Assembly (NCBI GenBank): GCA_040757115.1
Contig: JBFLYA010000043.1
Span: 7,066 to 23,142 of the forward strand
Direction of reading: 5' to 3'
Origin: a bacterium
GTDB taxonomy: Bacteria > UBA9089 > CG2-30-40-21 > SBAY01
DNA: 16,077 nt
Below the pieces are notes generated by a model. The model was not told where the DNA came from and did no database searches. It saw only the letters and a program-made list of their open reading frames with translations. Position numbers and translations under genes: made by a program. This document shows, one piece after another, positions 1-16,077 of the stretch; the first letter of the stretch is position 1; every line of letters begins with the position of its first letter.

Positions 1-1065
1 CCCGAGCCCCGATTTTCAGAGGAGATAATTGGAACAGCCAGCATAACTGTCAGGTCTGGTAGAGTGAGTCGATTTGACTTTGACCCGATTAACCATCAGA
101 TTATCAACACGAAGTTTGGCATTAAAGTAACTGCCCGGGACAGGTATGGCAATCTGGCAAGTGATTACAACCAGACAGGTTCTCTTACAACTAACTTTGG
201 TCAAATAAAACCTGCCTTTATTACCTTCAAGAACGGTATATCTACCGGCACAGTAATGATTGAAACTAACAAGGCAGGACCTGATGTCCGTATCAGTCTT
301 AGAGCCGAGGCAATAGAGTCTCAGAGTAATAATTTTGCTGTTTTATACGATGATGGAAGTGATGTCCGGATTGAAGAGGAAGGCTTGAAGATAGACATTA
401 AGTCTCATAGTGTAAGTAAAGATTATTACCTAAAGATAGATAAACGAGGTCTGGATGAGGATGAAATTAAGATAGCGAATTTGCGGATGAATCATTATAA
501 CCCGGGATTTTGTCTGCTAACTGATACCATTATCCGCATAGCAGCTAAAGATGGGGATAAGAAACCGATAGAAGGAGATTTTGGGACACGAACGACCAGA
601 GTGGCGATTTATTACTATCAGCCACCAAAGAATGTAGCCGAGGAGACATTGAAATTATACATCCTGGATGAGGAATCAATTGAATCGAGGTGGGTGGAGG
701 TAGCCAATGCACAGGTCTTAATCGGAAGTAATTTTATCTATGGCAATATACCGCATTTTGGGACATTTATCTTGATTGGGGAAGGGATACCGGCGGGTTT
801 TGATGCGGTTGTGGTCTATCCGAATCCGTTCAAGCCAAGCCGCGGGGATGAAAATATCGTTTTTGAAGGGTTACCAGAGGATACCCAGCTCCGCATCTAC
901 GACATCTCAGGTAGTTTAGTCAGAGATGAAGAAGGCAAACGCGCCACCTGGATTTGGGATGTTCGGGATAATTATGGGAAGAAGGTAGATAGTGGGGTGT
1001 ATATTTATGTGTTGACTACTGACGATGGGAAAAAGAAGATAGACAAGCTTGCGATTATCAGGTAG
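1..1065 (+). CDS. Secreted/surface protein with Ig-like region and C-terminal T9SS/FlgD-like sorting domain (5' partial)
   Basis: The frame is open from base 1 to the TAG at 1063-1065, so the gene enters from the left. The GTG at 64 is internal to the open frame and has no good Shine-Dalgarno, so it is probably not the real start. About 354 residues are visible. The first ~115 (nt 1-350) look like a bacterial Ig-like/invasin-like repeat, with text such as GIKVTARDRYGNLASDY. The middle (nt ~490-780) ends in a GNIPHFGTFILIG strand, resembling the membrane-proximal fold that often precedes such tails. The last ~88 residues (from nt ~802) carry VVVYPNPFKPS, a central LRIYDISGSLV strand, DSGVYIYVL, and a basic end, DKLAIIR. 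This is the pattern of T9SS type A sorting or FlgD-like Ig domains, which direct outer-membrane export and surface attachment. The passenger function is unknown because the N-terminus is missing. It converges on the broken nuclease gene. Confidence 0.85.
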   Translation, partial: PEPRFSEEIIGTASITVRSGRVSRFDFDPINHQIINTKFGIKVTARDRYGNLASDYNQTGSLTTNFGQIKPAFITFKNGISTGTVMIETNKAGPDVRISLRAEAIESQSNNFAVLYDDGSDVRIEEEGLKIDIKSHSVSKDYYLKIDKRGLDEDEIKIANLRMNHYNPGFCLLTDTIIRIAAKDGDKKPIEGDFGTRTTRVAIYYYQPPKNVAEETLKLYILDEESIESRWVEVANAQVLIGSNFIYGNIPHFGTFILIGEGIPAGFDAVVVYPNPFKPSRGDENIVFEGLPEDTQLRIYDISGSLVRDEEGKRATWIWDVRDNYGKKVDSGVYIYVLTTDDGKKKIDKLAIIR

Positions 1066-1351: not shown

Positions 1352-1651
1352 TTAATTTTCCTTCAACATCTTCTCTATCTTTTCCTTACCAAGAAGTTTT
1401 ATAAGATCTCTTTGTATTTTCTCTTCCCCAATGCTACGAATTACCTCTTTTTCTCCAATGCTACGAATTACCTCTTTTTCCCCAATGCTACGAATTACCT
1501 TCTCCTCTCCAATCCCTTGCACAAATTTGTCAATCCCTACTATATCGACAAGCTCTCTCATTATATCTGGTCTATCCGCTAATGTCTGTGGCATCAATTT
1601 TACCTCCTCCTTGAATTCATCAGGATGTAAATATAATCCTGTTTCGAGCAA
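1352..1651 (-). pseudogene. C-terminal fragment of an Rpn-like/PD-(D/E)XK nuclease-family protein with 9-residue tandem repeats
   Basis: Read from the TTG at 1651 it gives 99 residues, but the frame stays open upstream to 1711, through ERLLLELLETGLYLHPDEF, directly into the inserted element that ends at 1659. The TTG is therefore probably not a natural start. The sequence is charged and helical (FKEEVKLMPQTLADRPDIM), followed by copies of a 9-residue unit, IGEKEVIRS, and a closing LLGKEKIEKMLKEN. At DNA level the unit is a 27-bp tandem repeat from 1429 to 1509. Such repeat-bearing helical tails are common in Rpn-like nuclease/transposase-related proteins of candidate phyla. The fragment is on the same strand and in the same codon phase as the nuclease fragment at 1871-2146, so the two are probably parts of one disrupted gene. 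The middle of the protein may also be missing. Whether this piece is translated is unknown. Confidence 0.6.
1429..1509. repeat. 27-bp in-frame tandem repeat, 3 copies
   Basis: Three adjacent 27-bp units begin at 1429, 1456 and 1483, each starting CCAATGCTACGAATTACC. The first two are almost identical and the third diverges at its end. The unit is a multiple of 3 and encodes 9 residues on the minus strand (IGEKEVIRS-like), so copy-number change would keep the reading frame. Confidence 0.9.
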
Positions 1652-1658
1652 CTCTAAT

Positions 1659-1870
1659 AGTAACCGTTCACCGCAGAGACGCAGAGACGCAGAGAAGAAA
1701 ATTAAAATTTATTGATAACTATTCAGCCACAGATGGACACAGATGAAACACTGATTTTATTTTTTTATCCATGCTAATCCGTGTTAATCAGTGGCTGAAT
1801 AGTTACTTTATTTCTATGTCTTCTCTGTTCCTCTGCGTCTCTGCGGTGAAGGACTACCTGAACGGTTACT
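1659..1870. mobile_element. Outer palindromic MITE-like element inserted in the nuclease gene
   Basis: The ends are matching inverted repeats: AGTAACCGTTCA at 1659-1670 and its complement TGAACGGTTACT at 1859-1870. Each is followed inward by CCGCAGAGACGCAGAG-type sequence (1671-1696, against 1823-1848 on the other strand). The right arm has about 10 extra bases (GGTAGTCCTT on the minus strand) before the arms match again. There is no coding capacity and no clear target-site duplication. A third copy of the end motif lies at 2508-2519. The element sits exactly where the minus-strand nuclease reading frame breaks, after residue Lys92. It brings an in-frame stop (1814-1816, minus strand). Confidence 0.7.
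1715..1806. mobile_element. Inner 92-bp palindromic element nested in the 1659-1870 element
   Basis: The left end, ATAACTATTCAGCCACAGAT (1715-1734), pairs with the right end, CAGTGGCTGAATAGTTAC (1789-1806). Flanking arms GAAACACTG and TCCGTGTTAATC extend the homology. Both ends match those of the 1069-1344 element, so this is the minimal form of the same family. It lies between the two arms of the CGCAGAGACG element, which shows it arrived second. Confidence 0.7.
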
Positions 1871-2146
1871 CTTAAATAATAGCACATAAGCAAATAATCG
1901 GTCAAAATCATTCCGGGTGAATCTATCCCCAGGTGATTTATATTCAATAACATTATAATCAGTAAATGATTGGAAGACAAGAGGTAAAGACTTAACATCC
2001 GCATCCTTGCCCTTTCTAATGACCACAATATCTATCCTTAATGGCATTTTGCCAACTTCAACCTCAGTTTCAACCGTAAACCCTTTAGGTTCGAGTAAAT
2101 GTTTTAATACATTTGAGAAATACGGATGCCATTTCTTCTTCATCAT
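1814..2146 (-). pseudogene. N-terminal fragment of a PD-(D/E)XK nuclease-like protein, disrupted after residue 92
   Basis: The frame runs 110 codons from ATG 2146 (a second ATG follows at 2143) to a TAG inside the inserted element. Only the first 92 residues (2146-1871) are native; the rest, SNRSGSPSPQRRR and onward, is translated repeat DNA. The native part has the marks of a PD-(D/E)XK nuclease core: Glu26 in a first helix, Asp39 in MPLRIDIVVIRKG, and the E-x-K signature Glu68-Tyr69-Lys70 in YNVIEYKSPGDRF. This matches restriction-enzyme-like or Rpn/transposase-associated nucleases. The core looks intact up to YVLLFK, then the palindromic element begins. The likely remainder of the gene is at 1352-1658 in the same frame. 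A near-consensus promoter lies immediately upstream. The truncated product may still be made, but it lacks the rest of the fold and the tail. Confidence 0.7.
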
Positions 2147-2870: not shown

Positions 2871-2875
2871 AAGGA
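2871..2875 (+). promoter_or_regulatory. Ribosome-binding site that decides the giant-gene start
   Basis: AAGGA directly abuts the ATG at 2876 (zero spacing, unusable) but lies 9 nt before the in-frame ATG at 2885. The later codon also begins a normal signal peptide (MKRLNLF), so 2885 is preferred. Confidence 0.7.
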
Positions 2876-2884
2876 ATGATAAAA

Positions 2885-5800
2885 ATGAAGCGTCTCAACT
2901 TATTTGTCAGCATATCTATAATTTTCTTTAGCCTGACTAAACTCTGTGAGGCAAGCCTGCCGAAAGAAATACGAATTACCAATGTTACGGATAGCCAGAT
3001 TATTGTCTCATGGATAACCGATGTTGAGGAAACCTGCCAGGTCAACTATGGCCTTACCCATGCCACTGGTTTAACCGCTTACGATGTGCGTGGGCTACTG
3101 ACAAGTGATGATACTCATTATGTGAAAATCACTGGTTTAAATCCTGAAACTATATATTATTTTGAACTCGTCTCTGGCGCCACTGTGGATAATAATAATG
3201 GTATGTATTATCAGGCGAAAACCGGGGCAGATATTAAGCGGTCTGGACTTGATTTTGCCTACGGCAGGGTATTTAAGTCTGACGCCGTCACCTATGCCAC
3301 TGGCGCTATTGTTTATTTCTATCTCAAGGATGGGAATGCACAGGATAGTCCCGGTAACTCCGCCCTCTGGTCAAGTTTAGTCGATAGCAATGGTTATTGG
3401 TCTGAAAATCTAATTAATCTGAGAACACAGGATGGTAAAGAATTCTTTGAGTATTCTGTTGATGGTGGAGATAATCTCATTCTCTATGGAGAAGGAGCAA
3501 AAGAGGGAACGGCATCATTGACTATCTTTACCAATCAGGATTCACCTGCCCCGGATATGATTCTCACCTCAGACCGAATCAAACCTTCAGCCATTACTAC
3601 ACTAACAGTCAAACAGGTTACTTCTAATTCCATTTTCTTGAACTGGATTGCCCCGGGCGATGATGGAAATTCGGGACAGGCATCTTTATATGATTTAAGA
3701 TGGTCTTATGCGGAAATAAATGAAGGCAATTTCAAGAATGCTACACCAGTCCCAAATCTCCCGACGCCTTTACCTGCAGGTAATCAACAGGAATTTGAAG
3801 TCAAAGGGCTTTTGCCCGATACGCTTTATTATTTTGCCATTAAAACCCGTGATGAAGCTGGGAACTGGTCTAATTTATCCAATATTGTCTCTGGAAAAAC
3901 ATTGCCGCCACCTACCTCAATGTTAGCCTGGACAGGAGAATATAATTTTGTTAAAGATGCTCTACGATTAGATTTTGGCACACTGGGAACTAACTTTGTT
4001 TATATGGTTAAGTATATTCATCCGGGAAATCTTGCTCCACAAAAAGGTGAGCCAAAAATCATCCTTTACAAAGAGACAATTCCCATAGGCACATATTCGT
4101 TAACTTATGTCAACGGCACTTTTTCTACCGGAGCAATCTACACCTATTCCAGAGTCTTTCCAGAGAAAGGTGAATACAGTTATAAATTCTATTGTCAGGG
4201 TGCAGATGGCGAACCAACTCTTTTAACTAAAGGACCAATAGTTAGTGACATAGAGACTGGGGTGCGAATAACAAATCAAACCGATGCCCAATTTACCGTC
4301 TCCTGGAGGACTTCACAATCTACAACAGGATATATAAAATATGGCACAAATATTGCAGACCTGAATAAAATTGGGGATGATGACCGTGGTCAGAGTTTTA
4401 GCGGACAAACACACCATGTTACAGTTAAAGGGTTAGAGCCAGAAAAGATTTATTATTTTGATGTTGTCTCAGGCGGCGTGGTTGATAACAATTCTGGAAA
4501 CCACTACATTGCCCAGACAGGTCCGTCAGTTCTTGCCTCAGGAAGCGATTTGGTTTATGGACAGGTATTTAAACAAGGAGGAGAGGTTCTGGCGAAAAAT
4601 AGTATTGTTTATCTTGAATTAAAAGATAATGATGGTCAGGATAGTCCGCTTAGTTCAGCCATTGCCTCTGCACTGGTGCAGGATAATGGTTACTGGATGG
4701 CAGATTTAGTCAATTTCCGCACCCTAAACTTATCCGCACCATTTGAATACTCACCAACGGATGATTTGCTCTGTATATTTGTCCAGGGGGCAAATGAAGG
4801 CATTGGCAGTGAAATAGTGTTGACCGCGAATGATTCGCCAGCATCACCTGTAGAACTTTGCCTTGATACCGTTGCTCCGGCATCAATCACGACCCTTCAG
4901 GTAATAAAAGCAGGCATAGGCTCTATTACCTTAAAATGGCAAGCCACTGGTGATGATAAAACCATTGGCACAGCAACAAGTTATGACATAAGATATGCTA
5001 CCTTTACGATTACCGAGTCCAGCTGGGGATTGGCTAATGAAGTCCAATTAGAGCCTGCACCTGCCTTGCCAGGCGTTTTTCAGGAATTTGTCGTCAAAAA
5101 CCTTAACACCGCCACGACTTATTATTTTGGAATAAAGGCAATCGATGAAGTGTGGAATATCTCTGAATTATCCAATATTGCCATTGGCTCAACTACCCCT
5201 GAAATAAAACATCCGCCAATACTTGATTGGGTGGGTGAAGAAGAGTATTTAAAAGATGGTGTCTATCCCGATACCGGTAATAATGATATGAAATTTACCT
5301 TTCAGGTAAAATATATCGATTTAGACAATGATGCCCCAAAATCAGGTGAGCCAAAGGTGATTATTAAATCTTTTGGCACCTACACGATGAATTATGTAAA
5401 AGGCACATATTCTACCGGGGCAATTTATAAATATACGACATTTCTTCCATCACCAGGGACTTACACTTATCGGTTTTTCGCCACAGATGCCTCTGGTAGC
5501 CCTACTTTTACTATGGAAGGACCAATTGTTACGGATATTCCATACCGTGAGACGAATATTACTGACTCACAATTTACTATCTCCTGGCCATCGACTAAAT
5601 TAGAAATCGGCACGGTTAATTATGGCACCAATCCGGATTCTTTAATCTTATCCTTTAGTGATAATCGGGTAGATGATACCCATCATATTGATGTTACTGG
5701 TCTTACGGCAAATACTTTATATTATTATGATGTTGTCTGTGGTGGAGTAAAGGATGATAATCAAGGGTTCCATTATAAAGTCCAGACAGGTGCCTCGATT

Positions 5801-8800
5801 ATTCCCACGCCTGACTATCAAATGGTCTATGGCAAGGTTTATAAACAGGGTTGTTTTGAATATGCCGATGGCGCCATTGTCTATATTCAATTGCAGGATA
5901 AGGACAACAAAGGTGATTTGGGTAATTCTGCCTGGGCATCAGTTTTAGTCAGAGATGGAGAATGGAGATATAATCTGGTAAATCTCCGAACGGCTAATCA
6001 TCAATCTTTTTTTGATGACTGGAGCGGGGATAAAGATGAACTTTATTTATTTGCCGAAGGGGCGTTGGAAGGCACGGATACACTCACCATTTTCCCAATC
6101 AATGGCACTCCTGCTGAATATATGGAGTTATCGCGTGATATTACCCTACCGGGAACAACCACCTTAATTGCAACTAATACCACGCCGTTTTCCGTAACAT
6201 TGTTCTGGAGAGCCGCAGGCGACGATAAAAAATTAGGGACAGCAACCAGTTATGATATTCGCTACTCAAAAGGAGTCATAGATGAAGATACCTGGGCTAC
6301 CGCAAACCAGGTAATAGATGAACCCAAGCCTTTAGTCGCCGGAACAGAACAACAACTGATGATTACAGACTTAGAGCCAGATACCCTTTATTACTTTGGA
6401 TTAAAAAGCATAGATGAGGCAGGCAATGCCTCATCTATAAGTATTGCCACAGCAACGACAAAACCTCACCCTCCACCTGCCCTCAAATGGATAAATGAAC
6501 CTAACTATCAAGAAGACGGTTTAGAGCCAGAAAAAGGGTCTGTGGAGACTGTTTATACCTACTATGTTGATTATTTTCATACCGATAATCTTGCCCCGGC
6601 ACCTGGTTTTCCCAAATTACATATTTTAGCAGATGTTTATACAATGGTTGCAGATAACCCGGCGGATACAAATTACAGAGATGGCAAACGATACAAATAT
6701 ATTAAAATCTTTACCTTGCCCGGGACATACACCTACTCTTTTGAGGCGAAGGATACGGCTAATGTTCTGGCTCAAGGCACACCAACTCAAATTTCATCAG
6801 GGCCGGTGGTTGGTGTTATTCCTGTTTTAACATGGACTAAAGAAGAAGGATATGGAACAGACGGTCTTGAACCCGAAATAGGTGCTCCAAACACAACCTT
6901 TACTTATCGAATAAATTATCTCCATAGCCAGAATATCCCGCCAGCACAGGGTTATCCAAAGGTTTATATTTCAGGGCCTGTCAATCAATCTTTTTCTATG
7001 CAAGAGGTTGATTCGCAAGATACTGACTACACCAATGGAAAATTTTATACCTTCTCCATTGCGTTAACCACGATGGGGAAATATTATTACCATTTTGAGG
7101 TAAAAGATACAAATGATTTTCTGGCGACAACTCAAAAAATGACAGGACCTATTATTGCCAATGCACCAGTATTAAGTTGGGTTGATGCCGATGGCTATAA
7201 AACTGATGGCGTAGAACCAAACACAGGCAATAATAAAACCATATTTACCTATAAAGTCCGATATTGCGATGTGGATAATAATCCACCGGATTTATATTAT
7301 CCAAAATTATATGTGCTTCGTGGGGGCGAGATGGTGTATGAAAGGAAGATGTATCGAATCGAAGGAAATGATTATGTGACGGGCATAGTCTATTGTGTTC
7401 AATTACCACTTATTATCGCCAGTGATTACTATTCTTATTATTTTGAGGCAAAGAATGCGAGAGGGGTGTTGGCTGTGGGCACGCCAACGAATATTCATCC
7501 AGGACCTTTAGTTAATGGTCCCAATTATCCACCACGACTTCAATGGGTTGGCAAGGGTGAGTATATTGCGGATGGTCTTAACCCGGAAACCGGAACCGTA
7601 GGCACGACATTTACTTATCAGATTAAATACTCTGATATGAATGCCGACCCTCCTCAATCTGGATACCCATTAGTTTATCTCTACCGTGGGGAAACTCTTT
7701 CTGGAACAAAGACAATGAGTTATCTTTATGGGTCATTTACCAATGGTGCGGTATTCGAGGCAACTTATACCTTTAAATCAACAGGTATTTACAAGTATAA
7801 ATTTGAGGCAAAGGACAAAAAGGGTTTACCAACTTACATATCTTTTAAAATAGGTCCTCTAATTAGCACCGCACCGACATTGGAAAGGGGGACTGTCACA
7901 CCAGCGGTAGGCACGATAAATCTAACTACCTTTACTTACAAAGTTACCTATAAAGATGCCGATAATGACCCGCCAAATGCTCTATATCCAGTAGTGCATA
8001 TATTTAAAGATAGCAAGGAAATCATCGGCAGCCCCTGTCGGATGGAACCAGAAAACCCAGCGGACATTACTTATAATGATGGCAAGGTGTATAAATTCAC
8101 CAGGATTTTTGACCAGGCAGGCTCATTTACATATCAATTTGAGGCTTATGATTGTTTTGGAGTAAAAGCCACTGCCCCACCAATGGCACCGGGCCCTATT
8201 GTCCGCAGTGCACCTACATTGAATTGGACTTATGAACCAGGCTATTTGAATGATGGTCTTGAGCCTGAAGGCGGAACAATTCAAACCATATTTACCTATC
8301 GAGTCAATTATACTGACCTGGATAACCAACCACCTTTATCGAACTATCCTGTGGTTCATATTCTAAAAGGAGGTTATGAAATTCTCAACAGCCCCTTTGT
8401 GTTAGAGGAGGTAGATACATTAGACACCATTTATAAAGATGGGAAATTATTTACTCTGTCATACTCATTTTCAGGAATTGGCACATACTCGTATTATTTT
8501 GAGGCTTATGATTCTTTAAATATTAAAGGTGAAGGACCCGCAACAGGTACCAAAACAGGTCCTTCAATCATTGAGGGACCGATATTAAAATGGGCAAATG
8601 AGGAAGGCTACATTAATGATGGGATTAACCCTAGCACAGGCACAAGATATGTAACTAATTTTACCTACAAGGTAACTTATCAAGACCCTACGGGTTATCC
8701 TCCGGCAACAGGCTATCCGCGGGTGCATATCTTTCGCGGCGGTAATCCTGAACATATAGGTGGTCAGCAGATGTTCATTAAAGTTGGTGATGATTATAAA

Positions 8801-11800
8801 ATCGGGGTAACATACACCTTTGCCACTACCTTTCCAATTGGCGGCAAACATTACACCTATTATTTTGAGGCAAAAAATACCAAAGGGATATTTGCTTCAG
8901 GAGAACCAACAAATGAACAGGAAGGACCAATAGTTGAAGGACCTAATTTTAAACCAACACTTTTCTGGTCGCAAAAACAAGGTTTTATTTCAGACGGCAT
9001 TGACCCGAATTTCGGCACGCTCAAAACTGATTTCACTTATCAAATATTATATCAGGATACAAATGGTGACCCACCGGCAATTGGTTATCCAATAGTTTAT
9101 ATCTACAAACAAGCAAACTTAATCGCCACCGCCACGATGAATTTTGTTGACGGAAATTGGGCAAAAGGGGCAAATTACGCTTATTCAACCACACTCCCTC
9201 AAAAAGGTGAATATCAATATCAATTTAAGGTCAAAGATGAGCCGGGAGAAGAGGTAATATTTCCGCCATATTCCTTTGCCACAGGTCCAAAAATTAGCGG
9301 TAGTCCACAATTATGGTGGACTCAAGAGGTAGGATATACTTCTGATGGATTAGAACCCGAGACCGGCACCAAAGGAACGATTTTTACCTACCGTGTGGTC
9401 TATGTTGACGAGGATAACGAACCGCCGGGGGCATTGTTTCCTAAATTACACATCTTAAAGGGTGAGGTAGAAATATTAGCTCCAAAAATGTGGGAAGCAA
9501 ATCCAGCAGATACAAAATATGATGATGGGAAGATTTATAAATATTCTATCTCATTGACCTCGCCAGGAACTTATACTTACCGATTTGAGGCACAGGATAT
9601 CAATGGGCTATTGGCTGTGGGCACCCCGACGATACTTCAGCGGGGTCCAAAGGTTATACCTCTCCCATTTTTAGACTGGGTAGGGGTAGGGCAGTTCACT
9701 TCAGATGGTTTAGACCCGGAGGCAGGCACACCGGGCACTAAATTCACATTCAGGATAAAATATATTGACCTCGATAATCTTCCACCAGGAATTGGCTCAC
9801 CAAAGGTAGTTATCTTTTCAAACCAGCCACCTCATACTTCCTCTGTGATGCAAGCTGAGGATATTTATGATGATAACTATACTGATGGCAAACTGTATGG
9901 TATTTCTATCTTCATCCCCCAGGGAACATATACCTATAAATTTGAGGCAGAAAATATTGAGGGTGGCAAAGCGATTGGTCTGCCAGCACAATGGCAATAT
10001 CCCGGCCCACAGGTAAGTAATGCCCCGCAAGTAATAAATGGTCGGGTTAATCCAGGCACCGGAACCAAAGATACCTTGTTCACCTACATTGGAGAATACA
10101 AAGATATTGATAATGACCCACCGGCAACAGATTATCCAAAAGTTTGTATTCTGAAAAACGGTAAAGAGATTGCGGGAAGCCCATTTAAAATGAATGCCGA
10201 TGGCAATGAATACAAATTTTCTACCTACCTGCCAGCAGGGATAAATTATAGTTATCGATTTATCGCAAAAGATATTTATGGTGTAGAGGGTATGAGCCAG
10301 GATTATGGAGGACCATTTGTAAATAACATCCCTGTTTTACTCTGGGCAGGTGATACAGGATATACCGCAGATGGGCTTGAACCAGAGGTAGGCACGACCG
10401 GGACTATGTTCACTTTTTTAGTTAAATACAAAGATATTGACAACGACCCACCAGGCACAGGCTCTCCAAAGGTGCATATCTTTAAAGCAGACCAAACCAT
10501 TCCCGGAAGCCCTTTTGCAATGACCGCGGTTAATCCTGAGGAACACTATTTTAATGGTAAACGATATAAATTAGTAATTGCCTTTAACGAAAATGGGTCA
10601 TATAGTTACAGATTTGAGGCAGAGGATATGTATGGCAGTCCGGCAATTGGCGAGCCTGTTCAGAGGGTATCATCCGGGCCACAGGTCAGTATTCAACCTT
10701 CTTTAGATTGGCTTGGACTGGAAGACTACATCACCACTGGTGTCAGCCCCAATACCGGCACAATTGGCACAGAATTTGTTTATATGATAAAATATACCGA
10801 CCTGGACAATGACCCACCTGGCACGGATTCTCCAAAGGTAGATATTTTTAAAAATCAGGTTAGAATTGCGGATAGCCCATTTAAGATGGACGAAGTTTAT
10901 CCAGCAGATACGGATTATACAGATGGGAAATGGTATAAATTTACGAAAAAACTACCGTCTTGCGGAACTTATTCTTGTAATTTTATTGCCCGGGATAACA
11001 AAGGCCTTTTTGCCAGCGGCGAACCAACAATTATCAAAGAAGGACCAATAATTACTGGCCAGCCTATTTTAGAATGGACAGGTAAAGTAAATTATATAAC
11101 CGATGGCGTTGACCCGGATCCAGGTCTTACCTCTACCTATTTTACTTATCAGGTGAAATATATTGATATTAATAACTCAGCGCCCCAGCCGGGTTATCCA
11201 AAATTATATATATTAATGGATGGGCAGATATTTTCTCCATATCCATACGGTGTCACAATGTATCGAAAAGAAGGCTATAATTACCAGGAAGGGGTAATTT
11301 ATACGACACCATCGATAAGACTTCCATTTGCCAGCACAAAGTATGGTTACTATTTTGTGGCGAAAAATACGGAGGGACAACTGGCAAAAGGCACACCGAC
11401 TCTTCCTCAAACAGGTCCTACGGTTACTGGCGATAATAATCGACCAATGCTTTTATGGGCAAATCAGTCAGGATATATTTATGATGGTTTAGAACCCGAG
11501 GCAGGCACCTCTGGCACAATATTTACCTATTTAATCATCTATAGAGACTTAAATGGTGATGAGCCTTTTCCCGGCAATCCTCTTCTTCATATCTACAAAG
11601 GAGATATATTCTTCACCTCAACCACGATGAAAAAAGAAAATGGTGATTTTTATAATGGGGCGTTGTATAGTTATTCAACGGTTTTTGAGCAAAACGGCAA
11701 TTACAAATATAAGTTTTCTGCAAAGGATATTTATGGGGTTGATTGTTATCCATCTGCACCAACTAATTTTAAATCAGGACCTAATGTTGGTGCGGCACCT

Positions 11801-14800
11801 AAATTAATGTGGATTGGAACTGGCAGTTTTCAATCAGATGGGCTTGACCCGGAAACCGGCATCGTTTATGAAACAATCTTTACTTATAAAGTCAAGTACC
11901 AGGACGATAAAAATACCCCACCCGCTTCAGGTTATCCCAGAGTCCATATCCTTAAAAAAGGTATGGCGATAGACAATAGCCCTTTTCCAATGACACCAAT
12001 TGAAGGCGGAGATTATCAGACAGGCAAGGGATATCAATTTTTCAAGAGACTTGTTGTGGCAAGTGCAGAATATACTTATTATTTTGAGGCAAAAAATACC
12101 TCTGGAATTTATGCGATTGGAACTCCCACCGTTTCAATAAATAGCCCTGATGTTACCGGAGAACCATTACTTATCTGGTGTGGAGATAAACCTGAATATC
12201 TAACCGATGGATTAGACCCTGAATTTGGGACTGAGGGGACAAGGTTCACCTACCGCGTTTCTTATCGTAATGCTAATAATGACCCACCCGACGCAGATTC
12301 ACCCCGAGTGCATATTTTTAAACAGGGTGTAGAAATACCCAATAGTCCATATTTGCTGGTAGAAGAAAATCCTGCAGATACAGATTATGAAGACGGTAAA
12401 TTATACAATCTTACGCTCACGCTTGTGGTTGGCACATACACCTATAAATTTGCCGCAGAAAGTAATCACGGCATATCGGCTACCGGCACCGCTACATTTA
12501 TTAGACAGGGTCCTCAAGTTACTTTAGCCCCACAGTTAACCTGGGTAAATAAAGAAGGGTATATCACGGATGGACTTCATCCTGAGACAGGCTCGGCCAC
12601 CACACCTTTTGTCTATCGCATCATTTATACGGATAACGAGCCGCCGTCAGCCGGTTATCCTGTCGTTCACATCCTTAAGGCACACAACGAGATAAGCGGA
12701 AGTCCTTTTGTGATGAAACAAACTAATCCGGCTGACCTGATTTATAACGATGGTAAAGAGTATGAGTTCACCGCAACCCTCACCGCGAGTGGCAAGGATT
12801 ATGAATATTTCTTTGAGGCAAAGGATATAGTTGGTATTTCTGCCCAAACATCAAAAATAAATGCACCGGTCGTTACAAATCCCCCAGAATTAAAGTGGGT
12901 AGATGAAGATAATTATCGCACCGATGGACTTCACCCAGAGTTGGGCACCTGGAGCACAGAATTTATTTATAAAGTCCGATACCAGGATGCTAATAATGAT
13001 ATGCCAGCCGCAGGTTTCCCAAAGATTCACATTCTCAAAGGTGGAACTGAGATTTCAGGCGCTCCATTTCCAATGTTAGCCGTAAATCAATATGATACAA
13101 ACTGTGTAGATGGTAAAGATTATTATTTTAAGAAAACCCTGTCCGCCACGGGTAAGGATTACACTTATTTTTTTGAGGCAGAAGATGAATATGGTATCAA
13201 GGCAGAAGGGACGGCAACCACAAAAAAGGATGCACCAGATGTCAGTCGAGAACCAATATTATTATGGACGGGTAATGCGGGATTTATTGAAGATGGCGTT
13301 GAGCCTGAACTCGGCACAACAGGCACTAAATTTACCTACCAGGTCAAATATTTTGACCCGGATAACGACCCACCAACATCAGGTTTTCCAAAACTACATA
13401 TCTATCGGGAGGCGACATTTATTGGTTCATTTACTATGAATCCGGTGAATACGATATATCAATATGAAACTACCTTACCGCTGGGTAATTATTCATATTT
13501 TTTTGAGGCAAGGGATAACTATGGGATTTTAGCCGTGGGGACACCTACTTCACTTAAAAATAAACCCGTTGTTACAGATGCACCAATTTTAGACTGGGTT
13601 GATGAAGAGGGATTTAAAACCGACGGTGTTAAGCCAGATTCCGGTAATACAGACATTAACTTTACCTATAAGATAAAATATATAGATAGCAATAATAACC
13701 CACCTATCACTGGTTATCCAAAGGTAGTTATTTTTAAAAATGTTCTGGTATTGGGCTCATTTACTATGAAAGAGGTAGATGTAGAGGATATAACTTATAC
13801 TGATGGCAAGTTGTATTATTTTAACCTTCAATTTGCAGAAAGTAGTATTGATTACCTATATAAATTTATTGCTAAAGATTCTAATGGGATGGATGCGGTT
13901 GGTAAAATTGAACTTATGAACGGACCACAGGTCAATAATCCACCAGTCCTCGATTGGACAAAAGAAAGTGGGTATGTATCCGATGGAATTGACCCTAATT
14001 TTGGGACAACAAAGGAAAAATATATCTATCGAGTTAAATATACGGATAAAGATAATCATCCACCGTCTGCCGGGTATCCTAAATTATATATCTATTCTCA
14101 AGATGTGCCAATTCAGGATAGTCCGATAACGATGAATCCTGTTGATACTCAGGATGGGACTTATACCGATGGAAAATTGTACACCTTTGAGACTACTTTT
14201 GAAGAAGGCACATATACCTATAAATTTGAGGCAAGAGATATTTATCAAGCAACCGCAACAGGTGTAGCAACAGCCATTCAATTTGGTCCAACGGTAAATG
14301 ATGCCCCAGAACTAATCTGGGTAGATGCCGATGGATTTAGAACAGATGGCGTTGACCCGAACATAGGCTCAACAAATAGTAGATTTACATATAAAGTGCT
14401 CTATAAGGATGTTAAGAATATCCCTCCAGCACCGGGTTATCCTCGGGTGAATCTCTATATGGGAGGAATTTTCATCACGCCATCGTCTTTACTCATAAAG
14501 GAAAATGAAAATGATAACGATTATACAGATGGGGTAATTTACGGGATTTATGATGTTAGATATTCTTATGCCAGTGATGCGTATAGCTATCGCTTTGAGG
14601 CTAAAAACAATAATAATGTCGAGGCAATAGGTGAGGCAACAACGATTCATTCAGGACCTAAAGTTGAAGGGGTGAATTATTCACCATTACTCCTCTGGAC
14701 TGGCGAAAGTGATTATACAGATGGTTGTAATCCCGATTCCGGGGCGCCAGATACCCCTTTTACCTTTCATACGGCATATCTGGATATTAATGTTGACCCA

Positions 14801-15730
14801 CCGGCTCCAGACTATCCCGCTGTCCTTATTTATAAAGACGATAAGCCTTATGGAATCGGAACCTACACAATGGATTATGTCAATGGAAGTTATTTTAAAG
14901 GAGCTACTTATTCCAAAACCATCTTTTTAAATGCTACGGGAACCTATAAATATAAGTTTTATGCTAAGGATAATAAAGGGGAAGAGGCAAGAGGACCATT
15001 TACTATTCTGAGAGTGGGACCAAAGGTCAGTCATACCCCAAAGTTAGAATGGGCTGGACAGACAGGTTTCCAAACCGATGGATTAGAGCCACATGAAGGT
15101 ATTGTTCGAGAGACATATTTTACATTTAAAGTAAAATATAAAGATGAAGATGGCGATGCACCTTTGACTGACTATCCTAAAATTTGTATTCTTAATAATG
15201 ATAAGTTAGTCGGAAAGGCTAAGATGGTCGTTGAATCCGGGAATGATTTCAAGACAGGCAAGATTTATTTTTGTATCTTTAGACTAAATGAGGTAAGTGA
15301 TAAATACGAGTATTACTTTGAGGCAAAGGATGCAATGGGTGTAGTTGCTACAGGGACACCAACCTATGAACATCCAGGTCCAAAGGTGAAAGAAAAACCT
15401 CCTTCTTCCCCACAATTTGACCCATTACAAACCCTTGAGTTTCTTGAGATATTCAACTATCCAAATCCCCATACAGGGAAAACCACGATTTGTGCCAGGA
15501 CTAACTTGAATAATGTGCCAGTAACGATGCAAGTTGAGGTATTCAACATTATTGGCGAACTTATCTGGCAAATAGAAAAAAACATAGTTGTGGATAACGA
15601 CGGCATAGCCCAAATTGAGTGGAATAGCCAAAATGAGCAAATAGCCAGCGGTATTTACATTTATAAACTCAGGCTAAGCTATAACGGTAAAACAATGCAA
15701 AAAATAAACAAGATGGGAATAACACGCTAA
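2885..15730 (+). CDS. Giant (4281-residue) T9SS-type secreted modular surface protein
   Basis: Likely an extracellular stalk or adhesin; ligand unknown. The start at 2885 rests on AAGGA at 2871-2875 (ATG 2876 would add three residues). Residues 1-23 form a signal peptide, MKRLNLF plus a hydrophobic core, with likely cleavage after CEA. Residues 26-1312 are three ~430-residue blocks, each FN3-like, then a carboxypeptidase-regulatory-like sandwich (YGxVF, GAIVY, GYW, LxNLRT), then FN3-like, then an LxW module. Residues 1313 to about 4170 are 24 further tandem LxW modules with consensus LxW..GY..DGL.PE.GT, FTYxVxYxDxDNDPP, GYPKVHI and YxYxFEAKD. A Pro-rich linker (KEKPPSSPQFDP) leads to a sorting domain at ~4186-4281: FNYPNPHTGKTT, VFNIIGELIWQI, ASGIYIYKLRL and the end NKMGITR. 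There is no lipobox, enzymatic motif or membrane anchor beyond these. The frame is uninterrupted over 12.8 kb. It probably has its own promoter at 2572-2600. Confidence 0.9.
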   Translation: MKRLNLFVSISIIFFSLTKLCEASLPKEIRITNVTDSQIIVSWITDVEETCQVNYGLTHATGLTAYDVRGLLTSDDTHYVKITGLNPETIYYFELVSGATVDNNNGMYYQAKTGADIKRSGLDFAYGRVFKSDAVTYATGAIVYFYLKDGNAQDSPGNSALWSSLVDSNGYWSENLINLRTQDGKEFFEYSVDGGDNLILYGEGAKEGTASLTIFTNQDSPAPDMILTSDRIKPSAITTLTVKQVTSNSIFLNWIAPGDDGNSGQASLYDLRWSYAEINEGNFKNATPVPNLPTPLPAGNQQEFEVKGLLPDTLYYFAIKTRDEAGNWSNLSNIVSGKTLPPPTSMLAWTGEYNFVKDALRLDFGTLGTNFVYMVKYIHPGNLAPQKGEPKIILYKETIPIGTYSLTYVNGTFSTGAIYTYSRVFPEKGEYSYKFYCQGADGEPTLLTKGPIVSDIETGVRITNQTDAQFTVSWRTSQSTTGYIKYGTNIADLNKIGDDDRGQSFSGQTHHVTVKGLEPEKIYYFDVVSGGVVDNNSGNHYIAQTGPSVLASGSDLVYGQVFKQGGEVLAKNSIVYLELKDNDGQDSPLSSAIASALVQDNGYWMADLVNFRTLNLSAPFEYSPTDDLLCIFVQGANEGIGSEIVLTANDSPASPVELCLDTVAPASITTLQVIKAGIGSITLKWQATGDDKTIGTATSYDIRYATFTITESSWGLANEVQLEPAPALPGVFQEFVVKNLNTATTYYFGIKAIDEVWNISELSNIAIGSTTPEIKHPPILDWVGEEEYLKDGVYPDTGNNDMKFTFQVKYIDLDNDAPKSGEPKVIIKSFGTYTMNYVKGTYSTGAIYKYTTFLPSPGTYTYRFFATDASGSPTFTMEGPIVTDIPYRETNITDSQFTISWPSTKLEIGTVNYGTNPDSLILSFSDNRVDDTHHIDVTGLTANTLYYYDVVCGGVKDDNQGFHYKVQTGASIIPTPDYQMVYGKVYKQGCFEYADGAIVYIQLQDKDNKGDLGNSAWASVLVRDGEWRYNLVNLRTANHQSFFDDWSGDKDELYLFAEGALEGTDTLTIFPINGTPAEYMELSRDITLPGTTTLIATNTTPFSVTLFWRAAGDDKKLGTATSYDIRYSKGVIDEDTWATANQVIDEPKPLVAGTEQQLMITDLEPDTLYYFGLKSIDEAGNASSISIATATTKPHPPPALKWINEPNYQEDGLEPEKGSVETVYTYYVDYFHTDNLAPAPGFPKLHILADVYTMVADNPADTNYRDGKRYKYIKIFTLPGTYTYSFEAKDTANVLAQGTPTQISSGPVVGVIPVLTWTKEEGYGTDGLEPEIGAPNTTFTYRINYLHSQNIPPAQGYPKVYISGPVNQSFSMQEVDSQDTDYTNGKFYTFSIALTTMGKYYYHFEVKDTNDFLATTQKMTGPIIANAPVLSWVDADGYKTDGVEPNTGNNKTIFTYKVRYCDVDNNPPDLYYPKLYVLRGGEMVYERKMYRIEGNDYVTGIVYCVQLPLIIASDYYSYYFEAKNARGVLAVGTPTNIHPGPLVNGPNYPPRLQWVGKGEYIADGLNPETGTVGTTFTYQIKYSDMNADPPQSGYPLVYLYRGETLSGTKTMSYLYGSFTNGAVFEATYTFKSTGIYKYKFEAKDKKGLPTYISFKIGPLISTAPTLERGTVTPAVGTINLTTFTYKVTYKDADNDPPNALYPVVHIFKDSKEIIGSPCRMEPENPADITYNDGKVYKFTRIFDQAGSFTYQFEAYDCFGVKATAPPMAPGPIVRSAPTLNWTYEPGYLNDGLEPEGGTIQTIFTYRVNYTDLDNQPPLSNYPVVHILKGGYEILNSPFVLEEVDTLDTIYKDGKLFTLSYSFSGIGTYSYYFEAYDSLNIKGEGPATGTKTGPSIIEGPILKWANEEGYINDGINPSTGTRYVTNFTYKVTYQDPTGYPPATGYPRVHIFRGGNPEHIGGQQMFIKVGDDYKIGVTYTFATTFPIGGKHYTYYFEAKNTKGIFASGEPTNEQEGPIVEGPNFKPTLFWSQKQGFISDGIDPNFGTLKTDFTYQILYQDTNGDPPAIGYPIVYIYKQANLIATATMNFVDGNWAKGANYAYSTTLPQKGEYQYQFKVKDEPGEEVIFPPYSFATGPKISGSPQLWWTQEVGYTSDGLEPETGTKGTIFTYRVVYVDEDNEPPGALFPKLHILKGEVEILAPKMWEANPADTKYDDGKIYKYSISLTSPGTYTYRFEAQDINGLLAVGTPTILQRGPKVIPLPFLDWVGVGQFTSDGLDPEAGTPGTKFTFRIKYIDLDNLPPGIGSPKVVIFSNQPPHTSSVMQAEDIYDDNYTDGKLYGISIFIPQGTYTYKFEAENIEGGKAIGLPAQWQYPGPQVSNAPQVINGRVNPGTGTKDTLFTYIGEYKDIDNDPPATDYPKVCILKNGKEIAGSPFKMNADGNEYKFSTYLPAGINYSYRFIAKDIYGVEGMSQDYGGPFVNNIPVLLWAGDTGYTADGLEPEVGTTGTMFTFLVKYKDIDNDPPGTGSPKVHIFKADQTIPGSPFAMTAVNPEEHYFNGKRYKLVIAFNENGSYSYRFEAEDMYGSPAIGEPVQRVSSGPQVSIQPSLDWLGLEDYITTGVSPNTGTIGTEFVYMIKYTDLDNDPPGTDSPKVDIFKNQVRIADSPFKMDEVYPADTDYTDGKWYKFTKKLPSCGTYSCNFIARDNKGLFASGEPTIIKEGPIITGQPILEWTGKVNYITDGVDPDPGLTSTYFTYQVKYIDINNSAPQPGYPKLYILMDGQIFSPYPYGVTMYRKEGYNYQEGVIYTTPSIRLPFASTKYGYYFVAKNTEGQLAKGTPTLPQTGPTVTGDNNRPMLLWANQSGYIYDGLEPEAGTSGTIFTYLIIYRDLNGDEPFPGNPLLHIYKGDIFFTSTTMKKENGDFYNGALYSYSTVFEQNGNYKYKFSAKDIYGVDCYPSAPTNFKSGPNVGAAPKLMWIGTGSFQSDGLDPETGIVYETIFTYKVKYQDDKNTPPASGYPRVHILKKGMAIDNSPFPMTPIEGGDYQTGKGYQFFKRLVVASAEYTYYFEAKNTSGIYAIGTPTVSINSPDVTGEPLLIWCGDKPEYLTDGLDPEFGTEGTRFTYRVSYRNANNDPPDADSPRVHIFKQGVEIPNSPYLLVEENPADTDYEDGKLYNLTLTLVVGTYTYKFAAESNHGISATGTATFIRQGPQVTLAPQLTWVNKEGYITDGLHPETGSATTPFVYRIIYTDNEPPSAGYPVVHILKAHNEISGSPFVMKQTNPADLIYNDGKEYEFTATLTASGKDYEYFFEAKDIVGISAQTSKINAPVVTNPPELKWVDEDNYRTDGLHPELGTWSTEFIYKVRYQDANNDMPAAGFPKIHILKGGTEISGAPFPMLAVNQYDTNCVDGKDYYFKKTLSATGKDYTYFFEAEDEYGIKAEGTATTKKDAPDVSREPILLWTGNAGFIEDGVEPELGTTGTKFTYQVKYFDPDNDPPTSGFPKLHIYREATFIGSFTMNPVNTIYQYETTLPLGNYSYFFEARDNYGILAVGTPTSLKNKPVVTDAPILDWVDEEGFKTDGVKPDSGNTDINFTYKIKYIDSNNNPPITGYPKVVIFKNVLVLGSFTMKEVDVEDITYTDGKLYYFNLQFAESSIDYLYKFIAKDSNGMDAVGKIELMNGPQVNNPPVLDWTKESGYVSDGIDPNFGTTKEKYIYRVKYTDKDNHPPSAGYPKLYIYSQDVPIQDSPITMNPVDTQDGTYTDGKLYTFETTFEEGTYTYKFEARDIYQATATGVATAIQFGPTVNDAPELIWVDADGFRTDGVDPNIGSTNSRFTYKVLYKDVKNIPPAPGYPRVNLYMGGIFITPSSLLIKENENDNDYTDGVIYGIYDVRYSYASDAYSYRFEAKNNNNVEAIGEATTIHSGPKVEGVNYSPLLLWTGESDYTDGCNPDSGAPDTPFTFHTAYLDINVDPPAPDYPAVLIYKDDKPYGIGTYTMDYVNGSYFKGATYSKTIFLNATGTYKYKFYAKDNKGEEARGPFTILRVGPKVSHTPKLEWAGQTGFQTDGLEPHEGIVRETYFTFKVKYKDEDGDAPLTDYPKICILNNDKLVGKAKMVVESGNDFKTGKIYFCIFRLNEVSDKYEYYFEAKDAMGVVATGTPTYEHPGPKVKEKPPSSPQFDPLQTLEFLEIFNYPNPHTGKTTICARTNLNNVPVTMQVEVFNIIGELIWQIEKNIVVDNDGIAQIEWNSQNEQIASGIYIYKLRLSYNGKTMQKINKMGITR
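2959..6815 (+). repeat. Three tandem ~430-residue four-domain blocks in the giant protein
   Basis: Block 1 is nt 2959-4261, block 2 is 4262-~5539 and block 3 is ~5540-6815. In block 1 the order is FN3-like (2959-~3235), carboxypeptidase-regulatory-like (~3258-3565), FN3-like (3581-~3905), LxW module (~3912-4257). The same order recurs in blocks 2 and 3. The first FN3 begins ITN.TDSQ..VSW and ends with a VxGGVxDNNxGxHY segment. The second holds a GDD..xGTATSYDIRY segment and YYFGIKxIDE. Protein similarity between blocks is clear but well below identity, so the duplication is old. Confidence 0.85.
6821..15395 (+). repeat. Array of 24 tandem LxW modules in the giant protein (27 counting those in the blocks)
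   Basis: Taking the Pro of PxLxW as the first residue, and counting modules 1-3 in the blocks, modules 4-27 start at 6821, 7166, 7532, 7874, 8213, 8579, 8954, 9305, 9665, 10025, 10331, 10697, 11063, 11444, 11798, 12164, 12530, 12884, 13253, 13583, 13943, 14306, 14684 and 15038. Spacing between starts is 306-381 bp (102-127 residues), always in frame. The conserved core is a Trp near the start, DGLxPExGT, FTYxVxY, an acidic turn before PP, GYPKVHI, and YxYxFEAKD. The fold is predicted all-beta, like Ig/PKD/cadherin-type domains; I do not recognise an exact named family. Modules 7 and 13 are short at the front. Confidence 0.9.
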
Positions 15731-15775: not shown

Positions 15776-16077
15776 TTAATTAATACCCTTGATTTCCTCT
15801 ATTGTTAATCCCGTTACCTGTGATATTTTTTCAACTTTCTCTCCTGATTTCAAAAGACTTTTCGCTACTTCTATTTTGCCTTGTTGTAGCCCTTGTTGTA
15901 GCCCTTGTTGTAACCCTTGTTGTAGCCCTTGTTGTAGCCCTTGTTGTAGCCCTTGTTGTATTCCTTGTTTTAACCCTTTTTGTATTCCTTTTTCTATTCC
16001 TTGTTTTAACCCTTGTTTTAAGGCAAACTCTATCGCACCTCTTTGCATTCGGATAAAATCGTGCCGCTTATATTGAA
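15776..16077 (-). CDS. Rpn-like nuclease/transposase-family protein, C-terminal part with 4-residue tandem repeats (5' partial)
   Basis: The minus-strand frame is open from the right edge (16075) to the TAA at 15776-15778. The ATG at 16048 is internal to an open frame reading QYKRHDFIR and onward, so the true start is outside the window. About 100 residues are visible. They comprise a short helix (MQRGAIEFALKQG), a run of GLQQ/GIxK four-residue repeats, and a helix-turn-helix-like end (VEKISQVTGLTIEEIKGI). This tail is characteristic of Rpn-family recombination-promoting nuclease or PD-(D/E)XK transposase-related proteins, in which the nuclease domain is N-terminal. That domain is not in the window, so the assignment rests on the tail alone. 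It converges on the giant gene, with 45 bp and a hairpin between their stops. Confidence 0.65.
   Translation of the reverse strand, partial: QYKRHDFIRMQRGAIEFALKQGLKQGIEKGIQKGLKQGIQQGLQQGLQQGLQQGLQQGLQQGLQQGKIEVAKSLLKSGEKVEKISQVTGLTIEEIKGIN
15879..16022. repeat. 12-bp in-frame tandem repeat, 12 units
   Basis: Twelve consecutive 12-bp units start at 15879. Six of the first seven follow CCTTGTTGTARC closely, and later ones drift to CCTTGTTTTAAC or CCTTTTTCTATT. On the minus strand each unit encodes four residues (GLQQ, then GIxK or GLKQ). Homogeneous units lie towards the C-terminal side and degenerate ones towards the N-terminal side, as expected if one end of the array is expanding. Confidence 0.9.

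What the first reader, a model, noticed from the sequence alone, without database searches (positions are those of the whole stretch)
2885..15730. 4281-residue surface protein with 27 copies of an apparently uncharacterised ~118-residue module
Seen: one uninterrupted 12.8-kb frame with a signal peptide, a T9SS-type end and 27 copies of a Trp-initiated beta-rich module that I cannot assign to a named family. Known: very long repeat proteins with sorting domains are usually adhesins, S-layer components or gliding and contact proteins. Inferred: if extended, 36 or more beta domains could reach well beyond 100 nm from the cell, giving a stalk or bridge. The modules have diverged too much for this to be an assembly artefact of a collapsed repeat.
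Basis: partly seen in the sequence, partly recalled or inferred. Interest (0 to 1): 0.7.

Follow-up and report, generated by a model that had tools for sequence, protein, structure and literature searches.

The report
Giant fixed-order bacterial surface stalk
An uncultured bacterium makes a 4281-residue protein, probably displayed on its surface, in which a head of fibronectin-like domains sits on a chain of 25 related but individually distinct domains; the chain is kept in the same order in relatives, and a sister family makes the same head without it.

Summary
One intact frame (2885-15730, 4281 aa, 475 kDa) has a signal peptide, three fn3-X-fn3 head blocks, 27 copies of a ~118-residue module and a T9SS type A tail. 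Pfam and NCBIfam do not know the module, but it has relatives: it matches a C-terminal beta domain of the Paenibacillus xanthanase 6FHJ (profile E 6e-11; fold Z 12.8, 30% identity) and recurs in other bacterial phyla and in archaea, mostly between a head domain and a sorting tail. The array is not a recombining repeat. In four genomes of the family, module n best matches module n (93-99% within the genus, about 50-78% between genera, against 38% between positions), with one two-module indel; dN/dS is about 0.2. The sister family has the same head (38% over 1081 residues) and tail type but no stalk, with a PorV-OmpA gene directly downstream. A SprA-like translocon occurs in all 19 genomes of the phylum. 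Best reading: a T9SS-displayed rod holding a head roughly 75-110 nm or more from the cell. A polysaccharide-binding array is the main rival. New variant of a known kind, moderate interest.

The parts
2871..2875 (+). Shine-Dalgarno-like AAGGA, 9 bases before ATG 2885
   Evidence: sequence
2885..15730 (+). whole coding sequence, 4281 aa, MW 475 kDa, pI 4.7
2885..2956 (+). signal peptide, residues 1-24, no lipobox
   Evidence: sequence; similar start in three orthologues
2957..3922 (+). head block 1: PAP_N-like fn3, unnamed beta domain X, fn3 (residues 25-346)
   Evidence: Pfam fn3 and PF16656 hits; model of the homologous block 2 and fold search
3923..4258 (+). module 1, embedded in the head (residues 347-458)
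4259..5221 (+). head block 2: fn3, X, fn3 (residues 459-779); the block that was modelled
5222..5545 (+). module 2, embedded in the head (residues 780-887)
5549..6481 (+). head block 3: fn3, X, fn3 (residues 889-1199)
6482..15403 (+). stalk: modules 3-27 in tandem (residues 1200-4173), gaps of -1 to 3 residues, mostly 0
10028..10702 (+). modules 13-14, absent from the sister genus: the only indel of the array
6074..15424 (+). part absent from the sister family's orthologue: last fn3 of block 3 and modules 3-27 (approximate limits)
15455..15727 (+). T9SS type A C-terminal sorting domain (residues 4191-4281)

Best explanation
The protein is a type IX secretion cargo that stands on the outer membrane as a long rod. 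SHOWN by sequence: signal peptide, type A sorting tail, a SprA-like translocon in the genome, a head of three fn3-X-fn3 blocks, 25 directly abutting beta-sandwich modules between head and tail, each module kept in its own place under purifying selection, and a stalkless orthologue in the sister family. INFERRED: the tail is anchored at the cell surface, so the N-terminal head points outward. The 25 modules act as an extender of roughly 75-110 nm (3.0-4.5 nm each, taking published adhesin beta-sandwiches as yardstick), stiffened by near-zero linkers and perhaps by Ca2+ at the conserved D12, D33, D35 and D96. The head is the part that binds a surface or another cell. The modules stopped recombining before the genera split, so the stalk has a set length and order.
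For: Colinear modules in four genomes and dN/dS about 0.2. Same head and tail type without the stalk in four sister-family genomes, each followed directly by a PorV-OmpA gene. SprA homologue in 19/19 genomes. Gaps between modules mostly 0. Confident Ig/E-set-like model, pLDDT 94. Elsewhere the module mostly sits between a propeller, kelch, FG-GAP or beta-helix head and a T9SS tail. Known adhesin extender domains have the same size and fold class (PMC7493085). In the Cohnella xanthanase, versions that keep the b2-b3 modules but lack the C-terminal module do not bind XLT-xanthan (PMC11002231).
Against: No ligand, localisation or length has been measured. The SprA match is below its cut-off (106 bits for the best stretch; 193 of 200 on the whole protein). 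The relative orientation of modules was not modelled. The Ca2+ site is a guess from conserved acidic residues. The stalk could have been lost in the sister family rather than gained here. Individually distinct modules are unusual for a pure spacer and could mean position-specific binding.
Confidence: 0.6

Rival explanations
1. The array is a multivalent polysaccharide-binding surface: many weak sugar-binding modules that hold cell-surface or matrix polysaccharide.
For: The nearest solved relative is a beta domain of a xanthan-degrading enzyme. One carrier outside the phylum has CBM_4_9 and DUF5060 domains. Deleting an N-terminal b2-b3 pair of the Cohnella xanthanase lowered activity about 17-fold (PMC11002231). 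Modules differ from one another, which could give mixed specificities.
Against: Cohnella xanthanase with both b2-b3 pairs but no C-terminal module showed no XLT-xanthan binding. Most carriers are not carbohydrate enzymes. Most strongly conserved aromatics fall on predicted strands, as in a core.
Confidence: 0.17
2. It is a structural matrix or sheath component (S-layer-like or fibre-forming) in which modules pack side by side between cells or molecules.
For: Strict register and fixed length across genera; acidic protein, pI 4.7.
Against: The head is conserved alone in the sister family, so the stalk is not needed for its basic role. No S-layer family hit.
Confidence: 0.12
3. It is a gliding or contact adhesin moved along the surface, like SprB of Flavobacterium.
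For: Giant T9SS cargo on a cell with a SprA homologue.
Against: The tail is type A, whereas SprB belongs to the type B cargo that uses PorP/SprF shuttles (PMC12618676, and general knowledge). Gliding genes were not searched for.
Confidence: 0.06

Closest known systems
beta domain at about residues 824-930 of Paenibacillus GH9 xanthanase PspXan9 (PDB 6FHJ, 6FHN), probably the one called beta3
   Same: Homologous by profile (E 6e-11) and fold (Z 12.8, rmsd 3.2, 105 residues, 30% identity), including the DTxYxDGxxY and GPxV motifs
   Different: One copy (two in the Cohnella enzyme) in a secreted enzyme, against 27 here in a T9SS protein without a recognised enzyme domain
extender regions of RTX adhesins (MpIBP, MhLap, AhLap, SiiE)
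   Same: Tandem beta-sandwiches of about 100 residues that extend a distal binding head
   Different: T1SS export; MpIBP repeats are identical and MhLap/AhLap repeats 65-95% alike (PMC7493085), against a median of 38% here with position-by-position orthology
T9SS type A cargo proteins with Por_Secre_tail
   Same: Signal peptide, type A tail, SprA-like translocon in the genome
   Different: No enzyme domain found; length and array
SprB, giant T9SS adhesin of Flavobacterium
   Same: Giant T9SS surface protein (general knowledge)
   Different: Type B tail with a SprF shuttle; not compared by sequence here
titin and other fixed-order Ig/fn3 chains
   Same: Many distinct beta-sandwiches in conserved order; titin fn3 domains are among the fold matches of the head
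   Different: An analogy only, no claim of shared origin of the array

Membership tests
T9SS type A cargo | type A C-terminal sorting domain over the curated cut-off | tested here: met
   TIGR04183 29 bits (cut-off 23); PF18962 27.3 bits (cut-off 27)
T9SS type A cargo | genome encodes the SprA translocon | tested here: inconclusive
   three stretches in one 2011-aa frame, 193 bits on the whole protein against cut-off 200; present in 19/19 genomes of the phylum, 0/14 controls
T9SS type A cargo | N-terminal Sec signal peptide | tested here: met
   MKRLNLFVSISIIFFSLTKLCEAS by inspection; no signal-peptide program was run
T9SS type A cargo | cleavage of the tail and attachment to the surface | not testable with these tools
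   needs biochemistry
xanthanase beta domain (6FHJ about 824-930) | homology by sequence profile and fold | tested here: met
CBM84 | homology to the xanthan-binding module | tested here: inconclusive
   6FHJ holds four C-terminal beta domains and the CBM84 limits could not be read (the original paper is not held). By module order the match is most likely beta3, just before CBM84. No xanthan lyase chain was hit, though that family also carries CBM84 (PMC10881899)
RTX adhesin | C-terminal RTX repeats and T1SS signal | tested here: not met
   the C-terminus is a T9SS tail; no RTX family hit
RTX adhesin | Ca2+ in linkers between extender domains | not testable with these tools
   conserved acidic D12, D33, D35, D96 are suggestive only
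PKD or fn3 domain family (Pfam) | a module reaches the Pfam cut-off | tested here: not met
   25 modules scanned on their own; best E 0.0068 (X25_BaPul_like); each of the 13 families listed was matched by one module only, weakly

The most novel reading that the evidence does not exclude
A domain family not in Pfam or NCBIfam, spread over several bacterial phyla and archaea, has been built in one family of an uncultured phylum into a titin-like stalk of frozen order and length that lifts an existing surface head about 100 nm off the cell. The sister family gives a natural control with the same head close to the surface.
Probability: 0.45. Interest if true: 0.6.

Novelty: new variant of a known kind. 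Interest (0 to 1): 0.48.

Why it matters
The well-studied giant adhesins use near-identical repeats (MpIBP, MhLap, AhLap). This protein kept its modules distinct and in fixed order over a divergence in which silent sites are saturated. With a stalkless orthologue at hand, it allows a direct test of what a long stalk adds to a surface head. The module itself deserves a family entry: it covers a beta domain seen in a solved enzyme and found here in several phyla.

Tried and rejected
Original xanthanase paper: not held. Phylum name: not established. Related records are labelled 'bacterium Yes70-31' (JASEHU010000002.1), 'bacterium Yes70-11' and 'Nitrospira sp. Bin_21_1' (SBAY01000257.1), and the last label is doubtful. 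Considered and rejected: collapsed-repeat artefact (separate assemblies agree); recombining repeats (every shared position is its own clade); lipoprotein (no lipobox, and no Cys in the leaders of two orthologues). Middle domain X of the head: no Pfam name; the model of the whole block (pTM 0.49) matches mainly fn3 chains, so the fold of X is undetermined.

Full report
OBSERVATION. The frame at 2885-15730 is open over 4281 codons, with a Shine-Dalgarno-like AAGGA nine bases before ATG 2885. The window is G000:C43:7066-23142, at the end of its contig. A profile of the modules finds 27 copies: two embedded in the head and 25 in tandem. Median pairwise identity is 38%, range 24-53%. Two copies left out of the profile were recovered at E 2e-29 and 3e-22, so the repeat is not chance.

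ANATOMY. A signal peptide is followed by three blocks of PAP_N-like fn3, an unnamed beta domain X and fn3. Each block is followed by a module. After the third block the modules run without interruption to residue 4173, with gaps of -1 to 3 residues, mostly zero. The protein ends in a T9SS type A sorting domain. It is acidic (pI 4.7) and weighs 475 kDa.

THE MODULE. No Pfam or NCBIfam family covers it. A profile search of solved structures gives one clear hit, residues 822-917 of the xanthanase chain 6FHJ, E 6e-11. A model of module 11 (pLDDT 94; the piece starts five residues late and runs six into the next module) has 6FHJ 824-930 as best match in Foldseek and VIA-align (Z 12.8, rmsd 3.2, 105 residues; apart from the second xanthanase entry 6FHN the next rows are at Z 9.7 and below). 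The Cohnella relative of this enzyme is described with modules b1, b2, b3 and a C-terminal binding module. Versions with b2-b3 but without the C-terminal module did not bind XLT-xanthan, yet loss of the N-terminal b2-b3 pair cost about 17-fold activity (PMC11002231). That the matched domain is b3 is my inference from module order.

DISTRIBUTION. The module occurs in 12 of 19 genomes of the phylum and 27 of 367 sampled genomes outside it. Named records carry it in Bathyarchaeota, Methanomassiliicoccales, Sigynarchaeota, Desulfobulbaceae, Elusimicrobia, Armatimonadetes and others. Outside the phylum it mostly sits, in one to five copies, behind a propeller, kelch, FG-GAP or beta-helix head and before a T9SS tail, with PKD or carboxypeptidase-regulatory domains in others.

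HISTORY OF THE ARRAY. All four genomes of the family have the protein, with 27 modules in the genus (the second copy is cut by its contig end) and 25 in the sister genus. Each module's best match is the module at the same position, 93-99% identical within the genus and about 50-78% between genera; modules 13-14 have no partner in the sister genus. In a tree of 125 modules every shared position is its own clade, once with a paralogue from another gene inside or beside it. Modules 5, 9, 16 and 25 form one type and are each followed by a second type (6, 10, 17, 26), so pairs were probably duplicated before the genera split. dN/dS is 0.24 within the genus and about 0.20 between genera, where dS exceeds 1.2, so the second value is rough. 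Higher identity within a position than between positions follows from age alone; what it shows is that modules have not been exchanged since the split.

THE STALKLESS ORTHOLOGUE. Four genomes of the sister family encode a protein of about 1100-1180 residues: block 1, module, block 2, module, part of block 3, sorting tail. It aligns with window residues 6-1063 at 38% identity over 1081 residues. The next gene downstream encodes a PorV/PorQ-family barrel with an OmpA domain, a second link to T9SS. In the window's family that gene is not next door: a RecQ-like helicase follows in two genomes. Whether the stalk was gained or lost is open.

EXPORT. A SprA homologue lies in one 2011-residue frame (193 bits, cut-off 200) and is found in 19/19 genomes of the phylum and none of 14 controls.

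HOW IT PROBABLY WORKS. Shown: export signals, order, conservation, a stalkless relative. Inferred: surface anchoring by the tail, head outward, stalk as extender. A Ca2+ role is a guess from conserved acidic positions.

VERDICT. Observation confirmed; interpretation partly supported. It is a new variant of a known kind, with a module that is unnamed in the family libraries but has a solved relative.

Noticed in passing
G001:C2 (L046-L049) and G000:C29 (L042, L080): A 70,478-bp contig of a species of the same genus is one open frame of 23,492 codons, open at both ends, built of ~84-residue repeats. The window genome's C29 frame (8268 aa, cut at its own contig end) matches its last 7341 residues at 89%, continues about 930 residues with modules of the window's kind and ends in a T9SS-like tail, so the protein likely exceeds 24,400 residues. 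Two tested pieces had no Pfam hit.
   Followed up: partly
G000, many contigs (e.g. C2, C37, C44, C139): About 33 PorV/PorQ-family genes in one genome; 15 lie within 1.5 kb downstream of a T9SS tail on the same strand, against 0.3 expected. This looks like cargo-shuttle pairs made with PorV relatives, as known for PorP/SprF with type B cargo (PMC12618676).
   Followed up: partly
G000:C43:611-7090 (L040) and window 1-1065: Upstream lies a gingipain/PorU-like (C25) protein with a T9SS tail; a run of N separates its main part from the tail read in the window.
   Followed up: partly
G000:C13 (L041): A T9SS protein of over 4,200 residues with beta-propeller repeats carries four modules, three of which are the closest paralogues of modules 25, 26 and 27: a three-module cassette seems to have been copied between genes.
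   Followed up: partly
window 15776-16048 (-) and 1352-2146 (-): A downstream fragment with a QGLQ-type 12-bp repeat, and two upstream frames, look like pieces of Rpn-type nuclease genes among dispersed repeats; judged by eye only.
   Followed up: no
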